This document shows, one piece after another, positions 1-37,437 of a stretch of DNA of 64,000 nt (within the stretch, counting starts at the first letter, position 1; every line of letters begins with the position of its first letter). Source of the stretch: Herminiimonas sp. Its GTDB lineage: Bacteria > Pseudomonadota > Gammaproteobacteria > Burkholderiales > Burkholderiaceae_D. The stretch covers positions 1-64,000 of the forward strand of contig JAQGMR010000018.1 in NCBI GenBank assembly GCA_028292265.1, given 5' to 3'. The position numbers and the translations under genes were made by a program. Under the pieces are notes generated by a model. It searched no databases and had not been told where the DNA came from. It worked only from the letters and a program-made list of their open reading frames with translations.

Positions 1-159
1 CCGAAGCACCGAAGCACCGAAGCACCGAAGCACCGAAGCACCGAAGCACCGAAGCACCGAAGCACCGAAGCACCGAAGCACCGAAGCACCGAAGCACCGA
101 AGCACCGAAGCACCAAAGCACCGAAGCACCAAAGCACCAAAGCACCAAAGCACCAAAGC
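1..159. repeat. 8-bp tandem repeat array, unit CCGAAGCA
   Basis: About twenty head-to-tail copies of an 8-base unit, perfect at the left and drifting to CCAAAGCA at the right. The array runs off the left edge, so its full length is unknown. It lies downstream of the leftward cobA-like gene and no convincing reading frame crosses it. The period is not a multiple of three, so copy changes inside a gene would shift the frame. No function can be assigned. Confidence 0.95.
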
Positions 160-21809: not shown

Positions 21810-21885
21810 GTCCCCATCGTCTAGAGGCCTAGGACATCACCCTTTCACGGTGAGTACAGGGGTTCGAATCCCCTTGGGGACGCCA
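21810..21885 (+). tRNA. tRNA-Glu (anticodon TTC)
   Basis: 76 nt with encoded CCA. Acceptor GTCCCCA pairs with TGGGGAC. The anticodon stem TCACC/GGTGA encloses CTTTCAC, giving anticodon TTC. The 3' half is overlapped on the other strand by the end of the prophage recombinase gene, so this is the likely integration target, with the tRNA restored intact. Confidence 0.97.
21845..21885. other. presumed attL within the 3' half of tRNA-Glu
   Basis: The recombinase stop codon lies at 21845, inside the tRNA. Everything to the right through the window end looks phage-derived. Integration at a tRNA 3' end would leave a repeat of part of this segment at the right end. No second copy is visible before 64000, so core limits are unknown. 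Confidence 0.5.
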
Positions 21886-23374
21886 TTCCAAGACCGGTAG
21901 CGGCGTCTAATCGGTAAGTAATCTGGAAGGTCTGAGCAGTGTCGTCCAACACGACCTGCTCGACCAATCCTTTCAGCAAGTCTCGCAGTCCTTCCCGATC
22001 TATTCTCTCGAATTCTTCAGCCATCGTGGCGAGCAGTTTGCCCACTTGTGGCGCCGCGAGCGCTTTGACCTTTGCCGCCTCGTGGGCCTCCTCCATTCGC
22101 TGGTGAATCTGCCTTGCAAAGTCTGCCCGTTGCACCTCGTACTCTTCAACTTGGCGCAGCAGCGGCTCTGGCCGGGAGGTATCCGCGAGCATTTCCGTGA
22201 GCCGCCTGATCCGTCGGTCTAGCTCCGCACATTCCTTTTTCATGCGAGGAATCGCATCATCGTTCTTCCGGTCGTCGAACTGCTTGCGGGCAGCGTCCGT
22301 CAGGCCTTGCACGAATGCCGGCGTGCGCAGCGCGCGCTGCACCTCTCCCATGATGGCCGCCTCGACGATGGAAGCCTTTATCCGTTTCCCTTTGCCGAGA
22401 CGGTAATATCCGCCGGCGCCGCCGTCAGATCCCCGCCAGTTCTCACCGGCCGTCGACTTGAGCAGTCCTGTCAGGATGTAATCCGCATGGGCATGGTGTC
22501 CGCGGTCAAAGGCTTCCAGCCGAGCCAGAAGTGATTCTGCTTCCTCATTGGTAATCAGCGGTTCGTGCGTGTCCCGCTGCACGACCCATTCCGCGCGCGG
22601 CCGGCGCTTGACGCTGTTGGCATAGCCGCCGGCGCCGTGTTCGTATCGGACGTTCCAAGCAGTATGGCCCGCGTAGGTAAGGGCGTTCCACTCGACGCCC
22701 ACCAGCGTGCTTGAGGACGATTTGAGCCCAGACAGCGTGCAGGCTTTCGTTCGGTTGCAATCCTCGGCGCGCAGCTTGAGGTAGGCCTGCACCGTTGCCG
22801 CAGCGTCCCCCTTGATCAGTTTGCTTTTCTTGACCGGCGCGCCCTCACGGATTGCACCGGTCTCGACGTGCTGGAGCTCATAGCCCATCGGTGCCCGACC
22901 GCCCGCGCGCCAGCCTTGACGCACGTTCTCCGCCATGCCGGCGAGTCCCTTCTGTTTCGACGTGAGGCTGTGCCATTCATCCATCGCCTGGAGGATGGAT
23001 TTCAGGAGCATCTCTGTGATGGGATCTGAATCTGGAAGGGACTTATACACGACGCGGACGCCGTGCTTCCGCGCCTCGACCTCTTCGAATACCAGAGAAA
23101 TATGCCTGCGCCGCGCAAGCCGTGACGTATCGAGGATCAGCAGCGTGTCCCAGCCACGTCGTTTGTTTCGGACGGCGCCAAGCAATCGCTGAAAGCCGGC
23201 GCGCAGCTCGTCCTTCCCCGATTCGACCACATCGGAAAATTCCTCCGTGATCACGAAGCCGCGATCAGTCGCCAGCTGCTGGAGCTGCCTCCTCTGTGCG
23301 TCGATCGACACGTCTGACCTGTCCTTGCTGCTCCGAAGGTACAGGGCCGCCCTGGTTATTTGAGTTATTATCAT
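21845..23374 (-). CDS. large serine recombinase (prophage integrase)
   Basis: 509 aa. The N-terminal resolvase domain has Y-x-R-x-S (YLRSS, about 12-16, nucleophile Ser16), SIDAQRRQL and LDTSRLARR with the catalytic arginines. The recombinase domain follows (GWRAGGRAPMGYEL), then a long helical coiled-coil region (about 390-480). The segment where relatives hold a Cys4 zinc ribbon (LLKSTAGENWRGS...GGYYRLG) has no cysteine. The ATG at 23374 is preferred to an upstream TTG. The C-terminus MASPRGFEPLYSP is encoded by the antisense strand of tRNA-Glu. It should integrate and excise the prophage. Confidence 0.92.
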   Translation of the reverse strand: MIITQITRAALYLRSSKDRSDVSIDAQRRQLQQLATDRGFVITEEFSDVVESGKDELRAGFQRLLGAVRNKRRGWDTLLILDTSRLARRRHISLVFEEVEARKHGVRVVYKSLPDSDPITEMLLKSILQAMDEWHSLTSKQKGLAGMAENVRQGWRAGGRAPMGYELQHVETGAIREGAPVKKSKLIKGDAAATVQAYLKLRAEDCNRTKACTLSGLKSSSSTLVGVEWNALTYAGHTAWNVRYEHGAGGYANSVKRRPRAEWVVQRDTHEPLITNEEAESLLARLEAFDRGHHAHADYILTGLLKSTAGENWRGSDGGAGGYYRLGKGKRIKASIVEAAIMGEVQRALRTPAFVQGLTDAARKQFDDRKNDDAIPRMKKECAELDRRIRRLTEMLADTSRPEPLLRQVEEYEVQRADFARQIHQRMEEAHEAAKVKALAAPQVGKLLATMAEEFERIDREGLRDLLKGLVEQVVLDDTAQTFQITYRLDAATGLGMASPRGFEPLYSP

Positions 23375-23458
23375 TTGCTGTTCCGTCAAGCAGCGGGAGC
23401 GCCAATCTTACCGCAGCTTCAATGCAGGGCTGGTTTATGGAAGGTAAGGCGCGAAGTT

Positions 23459-24220
23459 TCATGCTTTGCGTTCCATAGCATCATCCGCGGCCACCGCCGA
23501 ACTGCTGCAAGAAGTGCATGAGTTCGATTTAATAGCAGCGTCAACGATCTCGTCTATTTTGGATGGCGTCTCCGCGTTGCCGAGTGCATGACAGGTGGTT
23601 GAATCGGTGTCATTGATCCAGAACGAGCGAAGCCACTGATACCGCGCTGCATCCTCGCCAAAGTTGGCAGTCCGGTTGTCTGCCAGCCGAAGACCATGCC
23701 GCAACGTGTCGCACTCGATTCCCAAGTTCGCAATCTTCGCCAGATCGTCGTCCGCCTGGCGGGAGAAGTTCACGATGACCCTCGCCTGGCGCGCGACCTC
23801 GGCCCGGGCGGCTTCGAGTTCGTCGCAAATCCCGATGATTACGGTCGGGCTAGCGGCGGCAATAAACTCAGCGTTGCAAATGTCCTCGTAAAAGGACCCG
23901 CTATATCCGACATCGCACACGAGTTTCCCGGACCCAGTCCTGATGGCATGGAGTTCTTGCGTCGGATCCTCGGCGCGCCACTGACCTGGAGTTGCGTAGC
24001 GGGCCAGTCTGCGAAGTTCGCACGTATCCGCCGTTGCTTGTTTTTCGCAATGTTCAACGCGCAGCTGGTCGATCCGGAGCGCCATCTTCGAAAGGAGGAG
24101 CGCCTGATCTCGCAAGACGTCGTCGGGGCTTTGCAGGTGGGCGCGCACACCGTCGATCACGGCAAGCAAGTCGGCATCCGAGATCGGCGCGGAGTCGCGA
24201 GTGAAGGAGATGTTAAGCAT
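23459..24220 (-). CDS. Ead/Ea22-like phage protein
   Basis: 253 aa. The middle segment CNAEFIAAASPTVIIGICDELEAARAE matches the recurrent motif of Ead/Ea22-like phage early proteins, in which it precedes a coiled coil. Downstream is EDAARYQWLRSFW, another segment common in phage early proteins. A Ser/Cys-rich tail (SCTSCSSSAV) ends it. Function unknown, non-essential in known phages. Last gene before the recombinase in the leftward early operon; its start overlaps the next upstream gene by eight bases. Confidence 0.7.
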   Translation of the reverse strand: MLNISFTRDSAPISDADLLAVIDGVRAHLQSPDDVLRDQALLLSKMALRIDQLRVEHCEKQATADTCELRRLARYATPGQWRAEDPTQELHAIRTGSGKLVCDVGYSGSFYEDICNAEFIAAASPTVIIGICDELEAARAEVARQARVIVNFSRQADDDLAKIANLGIECDTLRHGLRLADNRTANFGEDAARYQWLRSFWINDTDSTTCHALGNAETPSKIDEIVDAAIKSNSCTSCSSSAVAADDAMERKA

Positions 24221-24536
24221 CGGCGACCTCCGTCCCAGTTCCCGAGCCGTCAGAGCGCGAGCGAATTAGCCCTGGAGGAAGACCTTCGATTTCATCGACC
24301 GACTCACCGTTTAGTAAGGCCATCAACAAGGTAGTGATTGGATCGACAAGGCGCGCGAAGCCGTGAATGGCGAGTTCCGGATCGACATCGCCCTTCGACA
24401 GTCCGCAATTACCGGGGAAGTTCGGAACGACCGATTCCAGAGACTCGATCGCGTCGCACAGGGTGCACACCGCATCTGAGAGAAGGCGTCTGCGCTTTGC
24501 ATCCAGCTGCGGTTTAGGGGCGGAGGATTTAGTCAT
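24213..24536 (-). CDS. hypothetical small helical phage protein A
   Basis: 107 aa. No family recognised. Two amphipathic helical segments (LSDAVCTLCDAIESLES and ARLVDPITTLLMALLNG) flank a Gly/Pro-rich loop. A Lys-rich start and a Ser/Gly-rich tail frame them. It overlaps both neighbours by eight bases, so it is translated as part of a coupled string from 26277 to 23459. Its layout resembles the neighbouring small proteins. Confidence 0.65.
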   Translation of the reverse strand: MTKSSAPKPQLDAKRRRLLSDAVCTLCDAIESLESVVPNFPGNCGLSKGDVDPELAIHGFARLVDPITTLLMALLNGESVDEIEGLPPGLIRSRSDGSGTGTEVADA

Positions 24537-24843
24537 GGGTCTGCTCCGTCGCGCCGGGTCCGACCATGCTCTTCATAACTTCGTCTAACCCTTCGATTAC
24601 CCTCCAAGAATTGTCTGCCTGCCGTTGCAATAGCGATGCGACCGCCTTAATAACCACCTCGGGGCAGAACGTCGAACCGCCGATCAACTCTGTTTCAGGC
24701 AGCCGGTCGGCCGCCGATTGAATCGTCGACAAGCCGGCTTCGATTTGGGTAAGCAGCAGGGACGCATCCTCTCTTATCCTTGCCACCAGGCTGAGCGGAT
24801 GGGCTTCGGGGATCTCGGGCACGATTGACGTGTTCTCCATCAT
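24529..24843 (-). CDS. hypothetical small helical phage protein B
   Basis: 104 aa, acidic. No family recognised. Helix IREDASLLLTQIEAGLSTIQSAADRL, a short loop containing one Cys, then helix VVIKAVASLLQRQADNSWRVIEGLDEVMKSM. It overlaps the upstream gene by four bases (ATGA) and the downstream gene by eight. Predicted cytoplasmic, with no signal or membrane segment. Confidence 0.65.
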   Translation of the reverse strand: MMENTSIVPEIPEAHPLSLVARIREDASLLLTQIEAGLSTIQSAADRLPETELIGGSTFCPEVVIKAVASLLQRQADNSWRVIEGLDEVMKSMVGPGATEQTHD

Positions 24844-25175
24844 GCCTCTCCTTTTGCTTGCCGAAAAAGGTGGCTTCCGAGGACGCTCGCATCGGCATTG
24901 CCACTGTCTGTCAAGACGACCAGCGCATCGAAAAGACCGTAGACGGTTTTGATGTCCAGCAGATCACCGTCCGGACCTTGCGCATCCCGTTCAGTCTCGT
25001 TGGCGTAGAGGATTTTGACGATCGCGCTGATACCGTCCAGTGCGCGGCAAACGCTGTTCAATGAAACCCGGGACTTCTCGCATAAAATCTCACGCTCGGG
25101 GAACCTGCCTTGGAAGTCGATCCGAAGAGCGGCGATGCAAGGGGAGACGGCCTCGGACTTGTTATTTTTTGCCAT
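24840..25175 (-). CDS. hypothetical small helical phage protein C
   Basis: 111 aa from ATG 25175, which is preceded by an AGGGGGT ribosome site. An in-frame extension to 25223 would overlap the preceding gene further. Helical segment VSLNSVCRALDGISAIVKILYANE, an acidic loop, then IKTVYGLFDALVVLTDSG. No family recognised. Overlaps the preceding gene by 14 bases and the next by four. Confidence 0.62.
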   Translation of the reverse strand: MAKNNKSEAVSPCIAALRIDFQGRFPEREILCEKSRVSLNSVCRALDGISAIVKILYANETERDAQGPDGDLLDIKTVYGLFDALVVLTDSGNADASVLGSHLFRQAKGEA

Positions 25176-25506
25176 GGCGACCCCCTGCATTCTTGGCAAG
25201 ATAGGCATCGTTGGCCTTGTCAATGGCGTCTTCGGCTATGCTGGCCAGCATGCGCATGGAGCAGATTGCAAGGCGCACCAGCGTGCCGCGTGAGTAATCG
25301 TCGAACAATGCAGCGTCTCCATTCGAGACCGCCACGTCGGAACTCTCAACCGCGAGAAGAACCGTTTCAATGCCGCGCCCGATGTCCTTCACTGCGCATT
25401 GCAGGTAGGACGCTTCGTCGTGCCGACTGGGATCGTAATGCCACTTGATCGGTTCGAAAATCGGGTCCGGTTTCTCGGTCGTGTTTTGCGGAGCGGAGGT
25501 CGTCAT
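25162..25506 (-). CDS. hypothetical small helical phage protein D
   Basis: 114 aa from ATG 25506, which overlaps the preceding stop as TGATG. Core helices YLQCAVKDIGRGIETVLLAV and LVRLAICSMRMLASIAEDAID are separated by an acidic loop, with a basic Gly-rich end (NAGGRHGKK). No family recognised. Same architecture as its neighbours. Confidence 0.62.
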   Translation of the reverse strand: MTTSAPQNTTEKPDPIFEPIKWHYDPSRHDEASYLQCAVKDIGRGIETVLLAVESSDVAVSNGDAALFDDYSRGTLVRLAICSMRMLASIAEDAIDKANDAYLAKNAGGRHGKK

Positions 25507-25937
25507 CACGCATCGCCTTTCAACGTTGATTGATCGGTGGGCAATAGAACCTGGCACGGTATGCCGGATCGGATTTCAGAGTCGTGCTTGTGCTGCTCGT
25601 CCTGGTAGCGGTCGTAAGTGCGCTGTGCGATGGATTCGAGATGCGCATCCATGTTTTCGGCGTGGCGCCGTCCTTGAGTCGCGATGCCGTGGATGAGCTT
25701 CAGTCGGCGAGCGAGGTTGGCATTCCCCGTCGTCTCCGGATTGCTCAGTTCGAGAATCGGTTCGATGAAATCGACCAGCTCGCCGACGATGCACTTGCCA
25801 AGCGTCGTATTATCGTGAGACTCCAAGGCGAGCTCCACGAGCATGCTGCGAAGGCTTGCTCGAAGCGCGTTGTACCCGGCGTCGGGAAGACCCGTTTGAT
25901 CTTTCGCGGGTTCCCCTGTAGACTTTTTTGCAGCCAT
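25506..25937 (-). CDS. hypothetical small helical phage protein E
   Basis: 143 aa from ATG 25937, which follows GGGAGCAGAAA. An upstream in-frame extension to 26051 lies in the preceding gene. Helices ALRASLRSMLVELALES, CIVGELVDFIEPILELSN and ANLARRLKLIHGIATQ, then a His-rich helical tail. LVDFIEPIL resembles LVDPITTLL in protein A. No family recognised. Confidence 0.62.
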   Translation of the reverse strand: MAAKKSTGEPAKDQTGLPDAGYNALRASLRSMLVELALESHDNTTLGKCIVGELVDFIEPILELSNPETTGNANLARRLKLIHGIATQGRRHAENMDAHLESIAQRTYDRYQDEQHKHDSEIRSGIPCQVLLPTDQSTLKGDA

Positions 25938-26019
25938 TTTCTGCTCCCTGTGGTTGATGGTCAGGTCGTCGGAGTGGTGCAAACACTTCGGCGACCGATT
26001 CGTTCCGCTTTCTGTTTTT

Positions 26020-26277
26020 CTACGCCTTGTGCTGCTGAGACCAGCGCACATAGAGCCGCTGATTGATGGCTTTTACATCTGCCGCATATCTTTCTGCTAC
26101 CGCGACAAGAGTCAGGCCCCGACGGCTTTCCTGCGCCAGCTCTTCCGAGGCCAATGAAAGAAGGTCCGAAAGGACGTTCGAAATGGTTTCAAGATCCGTC
26201 GCGATGTCGTGAATCGATTCGTTCGTGTGTGTCTCATGACGGCTGTTCTCGAGCCGGGCCGCGTTAGTGGTGTTCAT
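26020..26277 (-). CDS. hypothetical small helical phage protein F, first gene of the leftward operon
   Basis: 85 aa. A polar N-terminus leads into helix IHDIATDLETISNVLSDLLSLASEEL, then a second helix LVAVAERYAADVKAINQRL. No family recognised. It begins about 45 bases downstream of the leftward promoter at 26329-26357 and is followed after 82 bases by protein E. As the first product of the operator-controlled operon it is expected early after induction. Confidence 0.62.
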   Translation of the reverse strand: MNTTNAARLENSRHETHTNESIHDIATDLETISNVLSDLLSLASEELAQESRRGLTLVAVAERYAADVKAINQRLYVRWSQQHKA

Positions 26278-26328
26278 GTCGTTCTTGAGGTCCTATTCAC
26301 GCCGCGCAGTCAGCGGGTACTAATTGGA

Positions 26329-26357
26329 ATAATATACTAGAAAAACTAGTATTGCAA
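26329..26357 (-). promoter_or_regulatory. leftward early promoter (PL-like)
   Basis: Read on the minus strand: TTGCAA at 26357-26352, a 17-base spacer, and TATTAT at 26334-26329. The spacer is almost exactly filled by a CTAG operator palindrome, so repressor binding would block polymerase. It drives the string of small genes from 26277 leftward. Confidence 0.75.
26334..26352. promoter_or_regulatory. operator OL, perfect ATACTAG-N5-CTAGTAT palindrome
   Basis: A 7-bp perfect inverted repeat around AAAAA. Another CTAG follows at 26364-26367. The same CTAG-N5-CTAG geometry recurs at 27842-27863 between the cI-like and cro-like genes and once inside the cI-like gene. These are presumed CI/Cro binding sites. 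Confidence 0.75.
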
Positions 26358-26384
26358 GATAATCTAGCTATTGCACCAAGGGCG

Positions 26385-26600
26385 AGTCGAAAACGGCTGT
26401 AGAGGGGAATGCAATGCTGAGGCTAGGGACATTAGAGAACCTTTCGTGAGAAACCAGCCGAGGCGGCGTGATGAAAGGTTAGCTATGTAATGTTTCCCTG
26501 TAACCCGATGAGCCTGCACGGTGGGAAACGTACAGGTATGGAGGGAACGATGCCGGGTTGGTGGTCACCTTGCCTGCTAGGTGGTAACTCTACGGGCAGG
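26385..26600. ncRNA. structured non-coding stretch, candidate regulatory RNA or ribozyme remnant
   Basis: No gene covers these 216 bases. Inverted repeats are dense: AACCTTTC 26438-26445 with GAAAGGTT 26473-26480 enclosing GCCG/CGGC; GTTTCCC 26492-26498 with GGGAAAC 26523-26529; AACCCG 26502-26507 with CGGGTT 26554-26559; GGTGGTCACC; and CCTGC with GCAGG. Several pairings overlap, allowing alternative folds or pseudoknots. It lies between the stop of the 277-aa gene and the PL promoter. No known RNA class was recognised, and the transcribed strand is unknown. Confidence 0.45.
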
Positions 26601-26601
26601 G

Positions 26602-27435
26602 TTACTTAGATTCTCTCGTCCAAATGGGAATCCATTTTTTGACAATGGTGTCGAACGAGATTATGGGGCTCCCGTCCTTGTCGGTCGGAATTTTAGTCAG
26701 CATATCGCTTGCAAATGCGGATTGCTTGGGGTATTTACCAGAGTCACGCTGCCATTCTATCCAGCACTCTTTTATAAATTTTTTCGCTTCTTGTTTCGGG
26801 TCGTCCCTGTACCTTTCAAGAGCGCCTGCCAAGCCGATCTCGCTCCTGGCCTGCTGCAGGCTGGTGCTTCCGGAATCTATTGCCACAAAGTTTGCGAAGG
26901 CGTTTGCGGCCTCTATAGCGGAATAAACGCCTCCGCCATCTAGGTGATTCGCGATGAGGCCATGCTCAATGCTCTCAAGGCACGCGAACAGGAAATTATT
27001 TTTTATAACCGCGGCGTCGGCAGCGCCCGCCTTTACCAATTTCCACGCAATTTCGAGGATTCCCATGCTGGTGAAGTCGTCGAAATCCGGTTCGATAGGT
27101 TGGTCGTCTTCATTCTTGAACACGACTCGTTTCTCTATCGCTACGGCCGCAATGGAGGTCCGAAGCCCTTTAATCATCTTGTAATGCTCAGCCAGACTGG
27201 CGTCGAACTCTTCCTTGTTTGAGCATGGCGGCAGCTTTAGGTATGCATCTCGTCCGAGTCGCCAGAGTGCTACGTCGTCCTCTGACATCCATTCCGGATC
27301 ATTTTTTTGAGCAATAAACGCCGGTTTACCATTTCGGTCAACGAAATGCTTGTTCGCCATTCCATACGTCATAAACGGATCGTAGGAATAAAAGCTCCAG
27401 CGCCCAGGCTCCCAGTCACTAATCAAAGTTGACAT
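26602..27435 (-). CDS. unknown 277-aa protein co-transcribed with the repressor
   Basis: 277 aa, not recognised. It starts inside the last codons of the cI-like gene (13-base overlap), so it should be expressed from the repressor promoter in the lysogen. Trp- and Tyr-rich N-terminus (WEPGRWSFYSYDPF), a helical middle, and a C-terminal basic/aromatic segment (KKFIKECWIEWQRD ... FDTIVKKWIPIW) that could bind nucleic acid. No signal peptide or membrane helix. Base composition is more AT-rich than neighbours. Position suggests a lysogeny-expressed accessory gene such as superinfection exclusion or phage defence. This is inference only. Confidence 0.75.
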   Translation of the reverse strand: MSTLISDWEPGRWSFYSYDPFMTYGMANKHFVDRNGKPAFIAQKNDPEWMSEDDVALWRLGRDAYLKLPPCSNKEEFDASLAEHYKMIKGLRTSIAAVAIEKRVVFKNEDDQPIEPDFDDFTSMGILEIAWKLVKAGAADAAVIKNNFLFACLESIEHGLIANHLDGGGVYSAIEAANAFANFVAIDSGSTSLQQARSEIGLAGALERYRDDPKQEAKKFIKECWIEWQRDSGKYPKQSAFASDMLTKIPTDKDGSPIISFDTIVKKWIPIWTRESK

Positions 27436-27794
27436 CCAAAAGCCGTAAGTTGAGATTTAACAGCGGCTCGCTGAGCCGGGTTGAGTCGATCAAACGCCTT
27501 AGCGATCCGCTGCGCCTCCATGCTCAGCCCTTCGAACTCAGTTCCAGCAACATCTTGAAGTGCGCTGGATTTGCTTTGCCTATGCTCCTCTGCGGGGCCA
27601 AAAAGCAGAGCTTCTGGGGATGTCTGCAATGCTTTGGCGACTGCATGTAGCCGCTCCCTTTTAGGAGCGGTTCCGCCTTCTTTCTCCCACTGCTGAATAG
27701 TTTGCCAAGCCGACACTCCCACTAGATCGGCTAGTGCTTGCATCGAGAGTCCCAGATGCTCCCTTCTCTGTTTGATTCGCTTGTGTATCGACAT
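27423..27794 (-). CDS. CI-type phage repressor, HTH only
   Basis: 123 aa. An XRE-family HTH occupies residues 1-65 (RIKQRREHLGLSMQALADLVGVSAWQTIQQWEKE). A short C-terminal helical segment (SMEAQRIAKAFDRLNPAQRAAVKSQL) is probably for oligomerisation. There is no LexA/S24 autoprotease domain, so induction cannot follow the usual RecA-stimulated self-cleavage. It is divergent from the cro-like gene across CTAG operators and co-transcribed with the 277-aa gene. A CTAG-N5-CTAG site lies within its own coding sequence at 27722-27734. Confidence 0.85.
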   Translation of the reverse strand: MSIHKRIKQRREHLGLSMQALADLVGVSAWQTIQQWEKEGGTAPKRERLHAVAKALQTSPEALLFGPAEEHRQSKSSALQDVAGTEFEGLSMEAQRIAKAFDRLNPAQRAAVKSQLTAFGCQL

Positions 27795-27841: not shown

Positions 27842-27866
27842 CTAGCATAACTAGTAAAACTAGCAT
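27842..27866. promoter_or_regulatory. operator OR: three CTAG elements at 5-base spacing
   Basis: CTAG CATAA CTAG TAAAA CTAG at 27842-27863, giving two overlapping sites of the same type as OL at 26334-26352. It lies directly before the cro-like start. The rightward promoter itself is not clear. Confidence 0.7.
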
Positions 27867-35254: not shown

Positions 35255-35710
35255 ATGCGAGGCGATGTTCACTGGTTTGCCAACTTCGAGTTAAAGGCGA
35301 AATCCGGCGTGAGTTTCAATCTCACCTCGGACACGCTCAAGCTCGGCATTGTCGGTAATGGCGTCGTCCCGACTGCCTCAACCGCTGATCCACGATGGGG
35401 CGCAGGCGGCTCAGTGGACTTCTCTGCGCAAGAGGTTGGACACGCCACAGCTTACACCGCGCCTGTCACCCTGACATCCGTCACCTGGACCCGCTCCAGC
35501 GCTGTGAATACGCTCGCTGCTGCCAACATAACCATCGCTCAGGACGCGGCAGGCTTCACCACTGGCTACTACGGCATCATCTATGACGACACTGTTGCGG
35601 GCAAATACGCTATCGGCTTCGTTGATCTGGGCGGGCCGGTCTCCATCGTTGGCGGGCCACTGAATATCAACTGGAATGCGTCCGGCGTCTTGACGGATAC
35701 GGTGGCCTAA
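35255..35710 (+). CDS. putative phage structural protein
   Basis: 151 aa, beta-rich. The segment FNLTSDTLKLGIVGNGVVPTA, then WGAGGSVDFSAQEV and AYTAPVTL, follows the pattern of small phage virion proteins found beside fibre genes. It ends in Gly-rich strands. Its stop and the next start overlap by one base (TAATG). First gene of a five-gene cassette upstream of the terminase. Virion location is inferred from context only. Confidence 0.6.
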   Translation: MRGDVHWFANFELKAKSGVSFNLTSDTLKLGIVGNGVVPTASTADPRWGAGGSVDFSAQEVGHATAYTAPVTLTSVTWTRSSAVNTLAAANITIAQDAAGFTTGYYGIIYDDTVAGKYAIGFVDLGGPVSIVGGPLNINWNASGVLTDTVA

Positions 35711-37437
35711 TGACTTACGCCGACCGCGTTAAGGACACGACGACCACGACCGGCACCGGTACGATTACGCTTGCCGGATCGCCACCGAGCGGCTTTCAGT
35801 CGTTCGCTGCTGGACTGCCTGCTTCGGCCTCGGTTCCTTATTGCATCGCAGGGCAGACGGGTTCTGAGTGGGAAGTCGGCGTCGGCGTTCTCCTGACCGG
35901 CACCACGCTTTCACGCAGCCCGACCGCAAGCTCTAACTCCGGGTCATTGGTCAACTTCAGCGCAGGCACCAAAGACGTTTTCTGTACGCAGTCAGCCAGT
36001 CAGATTGCAAAACTGCTGTCTTCGGATGATGTGGCCTTCGCTCTGGCTGTCCCTTTGACCGCTCAAGGCATCCGGTACATGCCGCAGCAGACCGTATCGA
36101 GCGTACAGGCTTTCACTGTCGCCTCTAGCCCGGTCAAGAACGCGCAAGTGTACGTTCGCCTGATTGCGGACGGCACCAACGCGCCAACATTCACTGGTTA
36201 CAAGGAATGGGGCGGCTCACTCGGTTATGACAACCGCAACGGCATCGTCAACGAAATAACCTTCTTTTATGACGGATACGATTACTGGTATTCGGTAAGT
36301 CAGGCAGTCGGAGCAACACCTGTCGTCGCAGCACCAAGCCAAGTCCTCGGCCTGACAGCAGGGACGCCAACCAATAGCACTGTTCCTCTGTCGTGGAGCC
36401 TGCCAACTGGGGGCGGCACACCGACCGACTACATTGTCGAATACAAGCTCACATCGTCCGGAACATGGCTTACGTTCTCGGACGGCACCAGTACCGCACT
36501 ATCGGCAACCGTTACCGGCCTTGCATCGTCCTCTGCCTACGACTTCCGCGTATCAGCGACTAATACAGGCGGGACAGGCGCGGTATCGAGTACGGTATCA
36601 GCCACGACCGCAGCAGCAGCCACCGTACCCGCTACGATGTCCGCGCCAACCGCGACCGCAGGCGATACCACGGCCAGTATTGCGTTCACGATCCCATCGA
36701 ACGGCGGGGCAACGATCACGGGCTATACGATTACCCCGTATATCGGGGCAACCGCGCAGACGGCACAGACCAGCGGCACCTTGACGAGCCCGATTGTGGC
36801 AACAGGTTTGACAAACAGCACCGCTTACACGTTCAAGATTCACGCCAATAACAGCGTCGGGTCAGGAGTTGACTCGCCTGCATCGAACAGCGTCACGCCG
36901 GTTGCGGCCGCAGCCTTCCTGCGTGCCGTGACAATCGGGTCACCAGTAACAGAGAGTGGAACCGGCCCTTATACCTACACGGCAGCGGGCGGAAGCCTCA
37001 CCAGTGGCGCTGGCATCGTGTTGGACAAGCATTTCCAATCTGGCGTTGATGGAAGCGTCCAGGCCACGTTCGGTAGTGTCACTGGCTCCAATGAGTTCAT
37101 GATTGGCCTGCGCGACGATACAACCGTAGGCGCTTGGACTACGCTCAAGGGCGGTTTGTACGCTTGGATGAATGGAACAAATCAGTACAACCAAGTTACG
37201 TTGACTGGTGGCGGTCCAGGTGGGATTGATGTGGCTTCCGTACCTGCCAGTGGCGACGTAATCAAACTTACTCGCACCGGCACAACCATAACGTTCGGCC
37301 TTGCGAGAGCAGCAACGCCAACCGTATTCGCGACCATTCACACGCTCACCGGCGCATCGACAGCATTGCAATACGTCGAGATCATCGCCATTGGCACAGT
37401 TACGGTTAGCGGCCTGACAAGTACCGGGCTGGCGTAA
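35710..37437 (+). CDS. phage surface protein with two fibronectin type III domains
   Basis: 575 aa. A Thr/Ser-rich N-terminal region (about 1-205) precedes two FN3 repeats: LTAGTPTNSTVPLSWSLPTG ... YDFRVSATNTGG (about 215-300) and APTATAGDTTASIAFTIPSN ... YTFKIHANNSVG (about 305-395). A C-terminal beta-sandwich-like region (FLRAVTIGSP... onward) may be a lectin-type domain. FN3 modules in tailed phages decorate capsids or tails and aid weak surface binding. Almost no charged residues in large stretches. The location before the terminase is unusual for a fibre. Confidence 0.75.
   Translation: MTYADRVKDTTTTTGTGTITLAGSPPSGFQSFAAGLPASASVPYCIAGQTGSEWEVGVGVLLTGTTLSRSPTASSNSGSLVNFSAGTKDVFCTQSASQIAKLLSSDDVAFALAVPLTAQGIRYMPQQTVSSVQAFTVASSPVKNAQVYVRLIADGTNAPTFTGYKEWGGSLGYDNRNGIVNEITFFYDGYDYWYSVSQAVGATPVVAAPSQVLGLTAGTPTNSTVPLSWSLPTGGGTPTDYIVEYKLTSSGTWLTFSDGTSTALSATVTGLASSSAYDFRVSATNTGGTGAVSSTVSATTAAAATVPATMSAPTATAGDTTASIAFTIPSNGGATITGYTITPYIGATAQTAQTSGTLTSPIVATGLTNSTAYTFKIHANNSVGSGVDSPASNSVTPVAAAAFLRAVTIGSPVTESGTGPYTYTAAGGSLTSGAGIVLDKHFQSGVDGSVQATFGSVTGSNEFMIGLRDDTTVGAWTTLKGGLYAWMNGTNQYNQVTLTGGGPGGIDVASVPASGDVIKLTRTGTTITFGLARAATPTVFATIHTLTGASTALQYVEIIAIGTVTVSGLTSTGLA

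What the first reader, a model, noticed from the sequence alone, without database searches (positions are those of the whole stretch)
26385..26600. Unexplained structured non-coding stretch beside the early promoter
At least six inverted-repeat pairs within about 200 bases, several mutually exclusive or pseudoknot-forming, with no gene and an embedded near-repeat GGTGGTCACC / GGTGGTAACT. It lies in lysogeny-expressed territory next to the 277-aa unknown gene. It could be a regulatory RNA, an RNA partner of the adjacent protein, or a remnant of a ribozyme such as a group II intron.
Basis: partly seen in the sequence, partly recalled or inferred. Interest (0 to 1): 0.65.

Follow-up and report, generated by a model that had tools for sequence, protein, structure and literature searches.

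The report
Operator-like DNA array beside unknown gene
The puzzling stretch next to a prophage gene of unknown function is in large part a row of 20-base DNA repeats, probably a docking site for the neighbouring protein and not a new RNA or ribozyme, and the same gene-plus-repeat pair recurs in other phages and genomic islands.

Summary
Relatives of the adjacent 277-aa gene explain its right half. They share a C-terminal domain without a match in four family libraries. At the 3' end of that gene lies an array of 20-bp units alternating A = GTnnnnAC and B = GCYRGC, centres 10 bp apart. A unit matrix trained without the window puts the two best of 127,962 single positions at 26561 and 26581 (+) and the best four-unit array at 26521-26600. 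Leave-one-out, the best array of the locus lies at this gene's 3' end in 37 of 42 loci, against about 5% by position. In islands the order is integrase, this gene, array, alpA, with promoter-like hexamers at fixed phase; in the window and two related viral contigs it is repressor, this gene, array, small-gene operon. Dyad symmetry inside A points to duplex DNA. Best reading: an operator array read by the 277-aa protein; binding is untested. The left half holds one unusually stable hairpin (26424-26500) of unknown role.

The parts
26521..26600 (+). Array of four 20-nt units (A element then B element): 26521 GTGGGAAACGTACAGGTATG, 26541 GAGGGAACGATGCCGGGTTG, 26561 GTGGTCACCTTGCCTGCTAG, 26581 GTGGTAACTCTACGGGCAGG; near-palindromic, so also readable on - from 26608
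   Evidence: Held-out matrix scan: 4-unit score 42.9; best two single units of 127,962 positions at 26561 and 26581; the six best 4-unit positions all overlap this stretch, so anywhere else is at most 5.9. Sequence-only profile trained without the window: only hit at E<=0.01 in its own genome, 26551-26606, E 3.8e-6
26602..27435 (-). 277-aa gene; conserved C-terminal domain (residues about 205-277), variable N-terminal part; array starts at its 3' end
   Evidence: No family in Pfam, PHROGs, NCBIfam, PADLOC; homologues; AlphaFold model pLDDT 86, C-terminal three-helix domain
26424..26500 (.). Imperfect hairpin / inverted repeat left of the array (outer GGGACATTA/TAATGTTTCCC, inner AACCTTTC/GAAAGGTT)
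   Evidence: z -3.6 (-) and -3.7 (+), 0 and 1 of 200 shuffles as stable; sub-range chosen after the fact
26476..26504 (-). Weak promoter-like pair GTTACA-17-TAACCT at the phase where island loci carry promoter-like hexamers
   Evidence: Read against the +24/+47 phase; only 4/6 and 3/6 consensus matches, so tentative
26329..26357 (-). Leftward promoter-like site TTGCAA-17-TATTAT before the small-gene operon
   Evidence: 9 of 12 consensus matches; number of such sites in the scanned region, 2, not above shuffles, 1.8
26337..26349 (.). CTAGAAAAACTAG palindrome in the promoter spacer, a candidate repressor operator (same motif twice at 27842-27863)
27423..27794 (-). 123-aa HTH repressor gene, overlaps the 277-aa gene by 13 nt
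   Evidence: Pfam HTH_3 E 6.4e-11; coordinates
26020..26277 (-). First small gene (85 aa) beyond the promoter
   Evidence: coordinates; no Pfam family, best PHROG E 0.043

Best explanation
The right half of the stretch (26521-26600, reaching the 277-aa stop codon) is a cis-acting DNA array read by the C-terminal, helix-turn-helix-like domain of the 277-aa protein. The protein, probably made together with the repressor in the lysogen (their genes overlap), would sit as dimers on phased palindromic elements (A and B centres 10 bp apart, on one DNA face) upstream of the promoter region of the next operon and control it: alpA in islands, the left small-gene operon in this phage. Shown: the array, its 20-bp phase, its placement at this gene's 3' end, and promoter-like hexamers at fixed phase in islands. 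Inferred: that this protein binds it, and that it regulates the next promoter; activation is slightly more likely than repression because the island -35 boxes are poor and the array abuts them. The left hairpin (26424-26500) is a second feature in the spacer whose role I do not know.
For: Unit matrix trained on 41 homologous loci with the window held out: top two single units and top array of the window fall here. Leave-one-out on whole loci: best two-unit array within -120..+160 of the gene's stop in 37 of 42, window included (expected about 5%); a further one, L070, has two gene copies in tandem and one array after the second, before alpA. Array profile against 392 genomes: hits at E<=0.01 in 15 genomes; the four strongest, window included, are all beside this gene, and so are G109 and G231. 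Two of these six, G044 and G387, were in the profile's training set; window, G304, G109 and G231 were not. G304's family gene had not been matched by the single-sequence protein search. Island order: 10 of 10 upstream ORFs tested are tyrosine integrases; 8 of 10 downstream ORFs tested match Phage_AlpA at E 0.0005 or better, one just below Pfam's cut-off. -10-like hexamers at fixed phase from the last A element: 8 of 34 loci at +26 and 8 of 34 at +47 (15 of 34 within +47..50); TTT at +24 in 11 of 34; 0 of 2000 circular-shift controls reach 8, or 11 for TTT, at any one position. A-element positions 3 and 6 complementary in 47 of 89 units against 29.4 +- 4.1. Viral contigs L041 and L042, related to each other, repeat the window's order: S24 repressor, this gene, array, small-gene operon. 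C-terminal variants ending TI(V/I/K)K(K/R)(W/Y)IP carry GTTACCAC/GTGGGAAC-type elements in 5 of 5 against 1 of 37 others.
Against: No binding or expression data. The C-terminal model has no significant Foldseek match; the VIA second look lists several HTH domains but only at Z below 6, and its top row is a filamentous-virus protein. The link of protein type and array type is close to one event (the four of the five that are in the tree form one clade), and gene and array are adjacent, so linkage alone could keep them together. Five of 42 loci fail leave-one-out (L029, L057, L058, L079, and L070 by position), and L023 and L065 pass only weakly. Nine of 15 genome hits of the array profile are not beside the gene (E 3.7e-4 to 0.0099; about 4 expected at nominal E values); I did not show that they are chance. 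In one search only one of four position pairs inside A exceeds shuffles, several pairs between neighbouring units do so too, and the shuffles ignore relatedness. The promoter-like pair in the window itself is weak, and the +26 loci are partly related. In PICMI115 the authors propose that the gene between int and alpA acts in the excision complex rather than as a regulator (PMC10803314, passages seen).
Confidence: 0.6

Rival explanations
1. Structured regulatory RNA (leader, antisense or protein-bound RNA) made from one strand.
For: 26424-26500 folds at z about -3.7. Stretches between array and alpA in islands fold at z < -1.5 in 25 of 34 (8 of the 34 start positions were off a start codon). 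Some complementarity between neighbouring units exceeds shuffles (p 0.001 to 0.007 for four pairs; covariation score reached by 16 of 500 shuffles) and the B-B pairing far exceeds slid versions (72% against 19-41% of cells), as palindromic units alone would also give.
Against: Array part folds like shuffles; no relevant Rfam match; weak consensus structure; B-B hairpin 72.3% paired cells against 70.1% in shuffles (79 of 500 as high); the arrays score better on the strand opposite the gene in 10 of the 36 loci scoring 18 or more, window included.
Confidence: 0.14
2. Recombination sites: arm-type or excisionase (AlpA/Xis-like) binding repeats used for integration or excision.
For: Array lies between a tyrosine integrase gene and alpA in islands; phased repeats are typical of such sites (general knowledge).
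Against: The window's integrase is a serine recombinase (Pfam Resolvase) and no AlpA follows the array there; L041 also shows no AlpA there. No second two-unit array scoring above 16 was found outside the gene's 3' end in 36 of 37 loci of 3.4-6.5 kb (L070 is the tandem case).
Confidence: 0.08
3. Replication iterons of an origin served by the protein or a nearby Rep.
For: Unit length of 20 bp and gene-array adjacency resemble iteron origins (general knowledge); E. coli PICI origins carry iterons (PMC6092414, passages seen).
Against: Promoter-like hexamers lie at fixed phase from the array; PICI origins are described with two iteron sets round an AT-rich stretch (passage); the window protein and five relatives match no Rep family in Pfam.
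Confidence: 0.06
4. Transcription terminator or insulator between the lysogeny operon and the next one.
For: Array sits between two same-strand operons; B elements can pair across an A loop and T-runs follow in many island loci (sequences).
Against: T-runs lie several bases off the last possible stem; the scan finds no terminator-like site at the array; four units are more than a terminator needs.
Confidence: 0.07

Closest known systems
iolg / icg genes of PICMI satellites (PMC10803314; passages seen)
   Same: Gene of unknown function lying between int and alpA; in PICMI115 needed for helper-induced excision
   Different: No repeat array or DNA-binding domain in the passages seen; the authors suggest a part in the excision complex; whether any iolg belongs to the family described here was not tested
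Gram-negative PICIs with an AlpA switch (PMC6092414; passages seen)
   Same: alpA is the regulated switch gene of an integrative element
   Different: No array upstream of alpA in the passages seen. The window is a prophage with a serine integrase and no alpA at this place
BisR of ICEclc, activator of a promoter upstream of alpA (PMC9286271; passages seen)
   Same: A regulator protein acting on an alpA promoter of an integrative element
   Different: No array described in the passages seen; relation of BisR to the family here was not tested
Operator arrays of phage repressors (general knowledge)
   Same: Phased palindromic DNA sites beside a promoter, next to the gene of their presumed reader
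Plasmid iterons with a Rep protein (general knowledge)
   Same: 20-bp direct units beside the gene of the presumed DNA-binding protein
   Different: No Rep match in Pfam; promoter-like hexamers at fixed phase
Group II intron
   Same: The GAGCC...GGTGGGAAAC stretch superficially recalls a domain V stem (my recollection of that motif, from no call)
   Different: No Rfam group II match even at E 10; most of that stretch is one array unit

Membership tests
Conserved gene-plus-array module (defined here) | 20-bp phased A/B array at the 3' end of a gene with the conserved C-terminal domain | tested here: met
   Held-out window scan and profile search; 37 of 42 loci leave-one-out
Conserved gene-plus-array module (defined here) | Protein binds the array | not testable with these tools
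   Only indirect: dyad symmetry inside A and one clade-level match of protein and site type
Operator of a DNA-binding regulator | Array at fixed distance from a promoter of the controlled gene | tested here: inconclusive
   Island loci: promoter-like hexamers and T-run at fixed phase, 0 of 2000 controls; only a weak pair in the window itself; promoters not mapped
Operator of a DNA-binding regulator | Reader carries a DNA-binding fold | tested here: inconclusive
   Three-helix model pLDDT 86; no significant Foldseek match; VIA rows include homeodomain, Pax-6, NiaR and TnpE domains at Z 4.2-5.4
Group II intron / other Rfam RNA | Match to a family covariance model | tested here: not met
   At gathering scores only two tRNAs elsewhere in the window; at E<=10 in 26250-26700 only two eukaryotic families far below their gathering scores
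Structured regulatory RNA | Compensatory changes that keep helices, beyond chance | tested here: inconclusive
   Array: little beyond shuffles. Left hairpin: no homologous sequence found to test
Structured regulatory RNA | Discrete transcript | not testable with these tools
   No RNA-seq at hand
PICMI iolg | Gene between int and alpA | tested here: not met
   Seen in islands but not in the window, where the gene follows a repressor and no alpA follows
PICMI iolg | Sequence relation to a known iolg protein | not tested
   No iolg sequence was fetched
Iteron replication origin | Rep-type initiator protein | tested here: inconclusive
   No Pfam Rep match, but a missing match does not exclude it

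The most novel reading that the evidence does not exclude
An unnamed family of mobile-element regulators shares one DNA-reading C-terminal domain joined to exchangeable N-terminal sensor domains, and carries its own operator array in the 3' end of its gene. In integrase-alpA islands it would gate alpA, the excision switch, in answer to a helper-phage signal; in temperate phages such as this one it would gate the left early operon alongside the repressor.
Probability: 0.3. Interest if true: 0.75.

Novelty: new variant of a known kind. Interest (0 to 1): 0.52.

Why it matters
How a helper phage activates the early (alpA) regulon of a satellite is posed as an open question in the PICMI paper (PMC10803314, passage seen). 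A gene family that sits between int and alpA and ends in a phased array next to the putative alpA promoter is a concrete candidate for such a switch, and its presence in a repressor operon of phages would link the two kinds of element. It also turns a supposed RNA into a simple, testable protein-DNA pair and gives a search motif that found one further member (G304).

Tried and rejected
Group II intron, ribozyme or known RNA: no relevant Rfam match. Close DNA relatives of the stretch: no convincing one in phages, plasmids or 99 relatives (short matches only). Naming the 277-aa protein or relatives by Pfam, PHROGs, NCBIfam, PADLOC, PDB profile and fold search: nothing significant. Single-protein searches of viral and genome contigs, phages and plasmids: none; alignments of family members were needed. 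RNA pairing between units: little beyond shuffles. First version of the protein-type test (5 of 5 against 6 of 37) counted GTGGGAA inside coding sequence; repeated on the array zone only. The phase-locked promoter in the window is too weak to claim. Literature: the listings (titles and abstract starts) and passages of four papers showed no description of this gene-plus-array pair; only open-licence PMC papers are held.

Rows dropped or approximated: duplicates L056, L069 and L075 left out of counts; from the promoter count (34 loci) also the window and seven loci (L029, L041, L042, L057, L058, L065, L079) with a weak array or no alpA. Upstream ORFs tested are nine of the 19 found (37 loci looked at; 18 without such an ORF) plus L022; downstream ORFs are ten chosen from the list. 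In one search, 8 of 34 assumed alpA starts were not start codons and the stretch was set by a fixed rule in a few. The matrix search was seeded with a consensus that I chose by eye from the homologous loci.

Full report
What was claimed and what is there. The stretch 26385-26600 lies between the stop of a 277-aa gene (minus strand, 26602) and a leftward promoter-like site (TTGCAA 26357, TATTAT 26329) with a CTAG palindrome in its spacer (26337-26349). Counting inverted repeats does not make the stretch special: 8 exact 6-nt pairs against 2.8 in shuffles, but a fifth of 591 other 216-nt stretches of the window have as many. Folding of the whole is mildly better than shuffles on both strands (z -1.8, -1.9). 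Only 26424-26500 stands out (z about -3.7, range chosen after the fact), while the array part is ordinary. Rfam has nothing relevant.

How the array was found. The 277-aa protein matches no family in four libraries. A search of 392 genomes of the same family found 6 with a match, the window's own included, and alignments of these reached more in genomes, viral contigs and genome contigs. The shared part is the C-terminal domain (about DPKQ..K.FVKECW..W....YKSKAAFARDML.K....S..VIE.WCR.W); N-terminal parts differ between groups. Laid out from the stop codon, the downstream DNA shows short phased palindromes in most loci.

The unit. Expectation-maximisation on 41 loci (-90 to +150 round the stop), window held out and seeded with a consensus read by eye from the loci, gave a 20-nt unit GTGAGCACCCTGCCAGCAGA with hits mostly at exact 20-nt steps, often at -24, -4 and +16 from the stop, so that the array often starts inside the last codons. 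Its two cores, A = GTnnnnAC and B = GCYRGC, are both near-palindromic and have centres 10 bp apart. Applied to the 64-kb window, the matrix puts the two best of 127,962 single positions at 26561 (16.0) and 26581 (15.6) on the plus strand; the best elsewhere is 13.8. The best four-unit array is 26521-26600 (42.9); the six best four-unit positions all overlap the stretch, so anywhere else is at most 5.9. Base autocorrelation in the array zone peaks at lag 20 in the loci (0.37) and in the window (0.42, with 0.35 at lag 19).

How general it is. With each locus and its near relatives left out of training, the best two-unit array of the locus lies within -120..+160 of the stop in 37 of 42 loci, window included, against about 5% by position. 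L023 and L065 pass only weakly. The five that fail are L029, L057, L058, L079 and L070. In L070 two family genes lie in tandem and the only array follows the second, just before an alpA-like ORF; the other four show repeats with about 21-nt spacing by eye. A sequence-only profile made from 22 arrays without the window hit 15 of 392 genomes at E <= 0.01. The four best all lie beside a family gene, the window among them at 3.8e-6 as the only hit in its genome; so do G109 and G231. G044 and G387, the two best, were in the training set; the window, G304, G109 and G231 were not. The other nine genomes have no family gene in the 3-kb loci; their hits are weak (3.7e-4 to 0.0099, about four expected at nominal E). 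Of the two whose ORFs I listed, one is a terminator-like hairpin after an ORF (L084) and one lies at the start of another ORF (L087); the rest I did not resolve. G304's family gene was found through the array, not through the first protein search.

Two contexts. In islands the order on one strand is tyrosine integrase (10 of 10 upstream ORFs tested), family gene, array, alpA (8 of 10 downstream ORFs tested match Phage_AlpA). In two viral contigs of about 40 kb, L041 and L042, related to each other, the order is S24 repressor, family gene, array, small genes, as in the window: repressor, 277-aa gene, array, small-gene operon. The window is a prophage with a serine recombinase, terminase, portal, capsid and sheath genes. 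An alpA or tyrosine integrase partner is therefore not essential to the array.

DNA rather than RNA. Within A, positions 3 and 6 are complementary in 47 of 89 units against 29.4 +- 4.1 expected (0 of 2000 shuffles). Two bases lie between them, too few for a hairpin, so this is dyad symmetry of duplex DNA, as a dimer would read it. The other three pairs inside A show no excess, and the shuffles ignore relatedness. Several pairs between neighbouring units also exceed shuffles (p 0.001 to 0.007), which like palindromes would give but a hairpin would too. On the aligned arrays, B-B pairing is 72.3% against 70.1% in shuffles, with a covariation score reached by 16 of 500 shuffles and far above slid versions; the consensus structure is weak. 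Ten of the 36 arrays scoring 18 or more, the window's among them, score better on the strand opposite the gene.

A promoter at fixed phase. Measured from the last A element, -10-like hexamers pile up at +26 (8 of 34 loci, partly related to each other) and +47 (8; 15 within +47..50), with TTT at +24 in 11; none of 2000 circular-shift controls reaches 8, or 11 for TTT, at one position. So in islands the array seems to abut the alpA promoter. Between that place and alpA many loci hold a hairpin of differing sequence (25 of 34 at z < -1.5, median -2.6; 8 assumed starts were off). The window's hairpin at 26424-26500 lies in the comparable spacer, but closer to the array, and I do not claim it is the same thing.

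The protein. AlphaFold gives a mostly helical 277-aa model (pLDDT 86) and a three-helix C-terminal domain (pLDDT 86). No Foldseek match is significant; the second look lists HTH-type domains among low-Z rows, which fits but does not prove DNA binding. Members ending TI(V/I/K)K(K/R)(W/Y)IP, the window's included, carry GTTACCAC- or GTGGGAAC-type elements (5 of 5, against 1 of 37 others). The four of them placed in the tree form one clade, so this is close to a single event.

Verdict. The stretch is a composite: a DNA array that belongs with the 277-aa gene (strong), most likely its operator for the next operon (inferred), plus an unexplained hairpin. In the PICMI115 satellite a gene in the same place between int and alpA is needed for excision, the authors suggest a part in the excision complex, and they ask how the helper phage activates the early regulon (PMC10803314, passages seen); this is why the pair is worth testing.

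Noticed in passing
L070 2398-4170: Two family genes in tandem share one array, placed after the second and before an alpA-like ORF.
   Followed up: partly
island loci, between array and alpA (e.g. L032, L034, L053, L022): Stretches before alpA hold stable hairpins of differing sequence; 25 of 34 at z < -1.5 (some starts approximate). Possibly a second, RNA- or DNA-level control of alpA.
   Followed up: partly
window 27842-27863 and 26337-26349: CTAG-N5-CTAG palindromes (double near the rightward early genes, single at the leftward promoter) look like repressor operators; with one mismatch allowed their number in the window is not above chance.
   Followed up: no
window 21810-23389: The serine-recombinase ORF (21845-23389, -) ends inside the tRNA-Glu gene (21810-21885), suggesting the attachment site.
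   Followed up: no
window 24213-26277: Run of small, partly overlapping ORFs (85-181 aa) without convincing family matches in the four tested; L041 has a similar run of small ORFs after its array.
   Followed up: no
L031/L032 and L033/L067 against window, L022, L046, L077, L078: N-terminal parts look like several different types on the same C-terminal domain, with whole proteins from about 158 aa (L063) to 319 aa (L078), as if sensor domains were swapped.
   Followed up: partly
window 35710-37437: 575-aa ORF with two fibronectin type III stretches among the phage genes.
   Followed up: no
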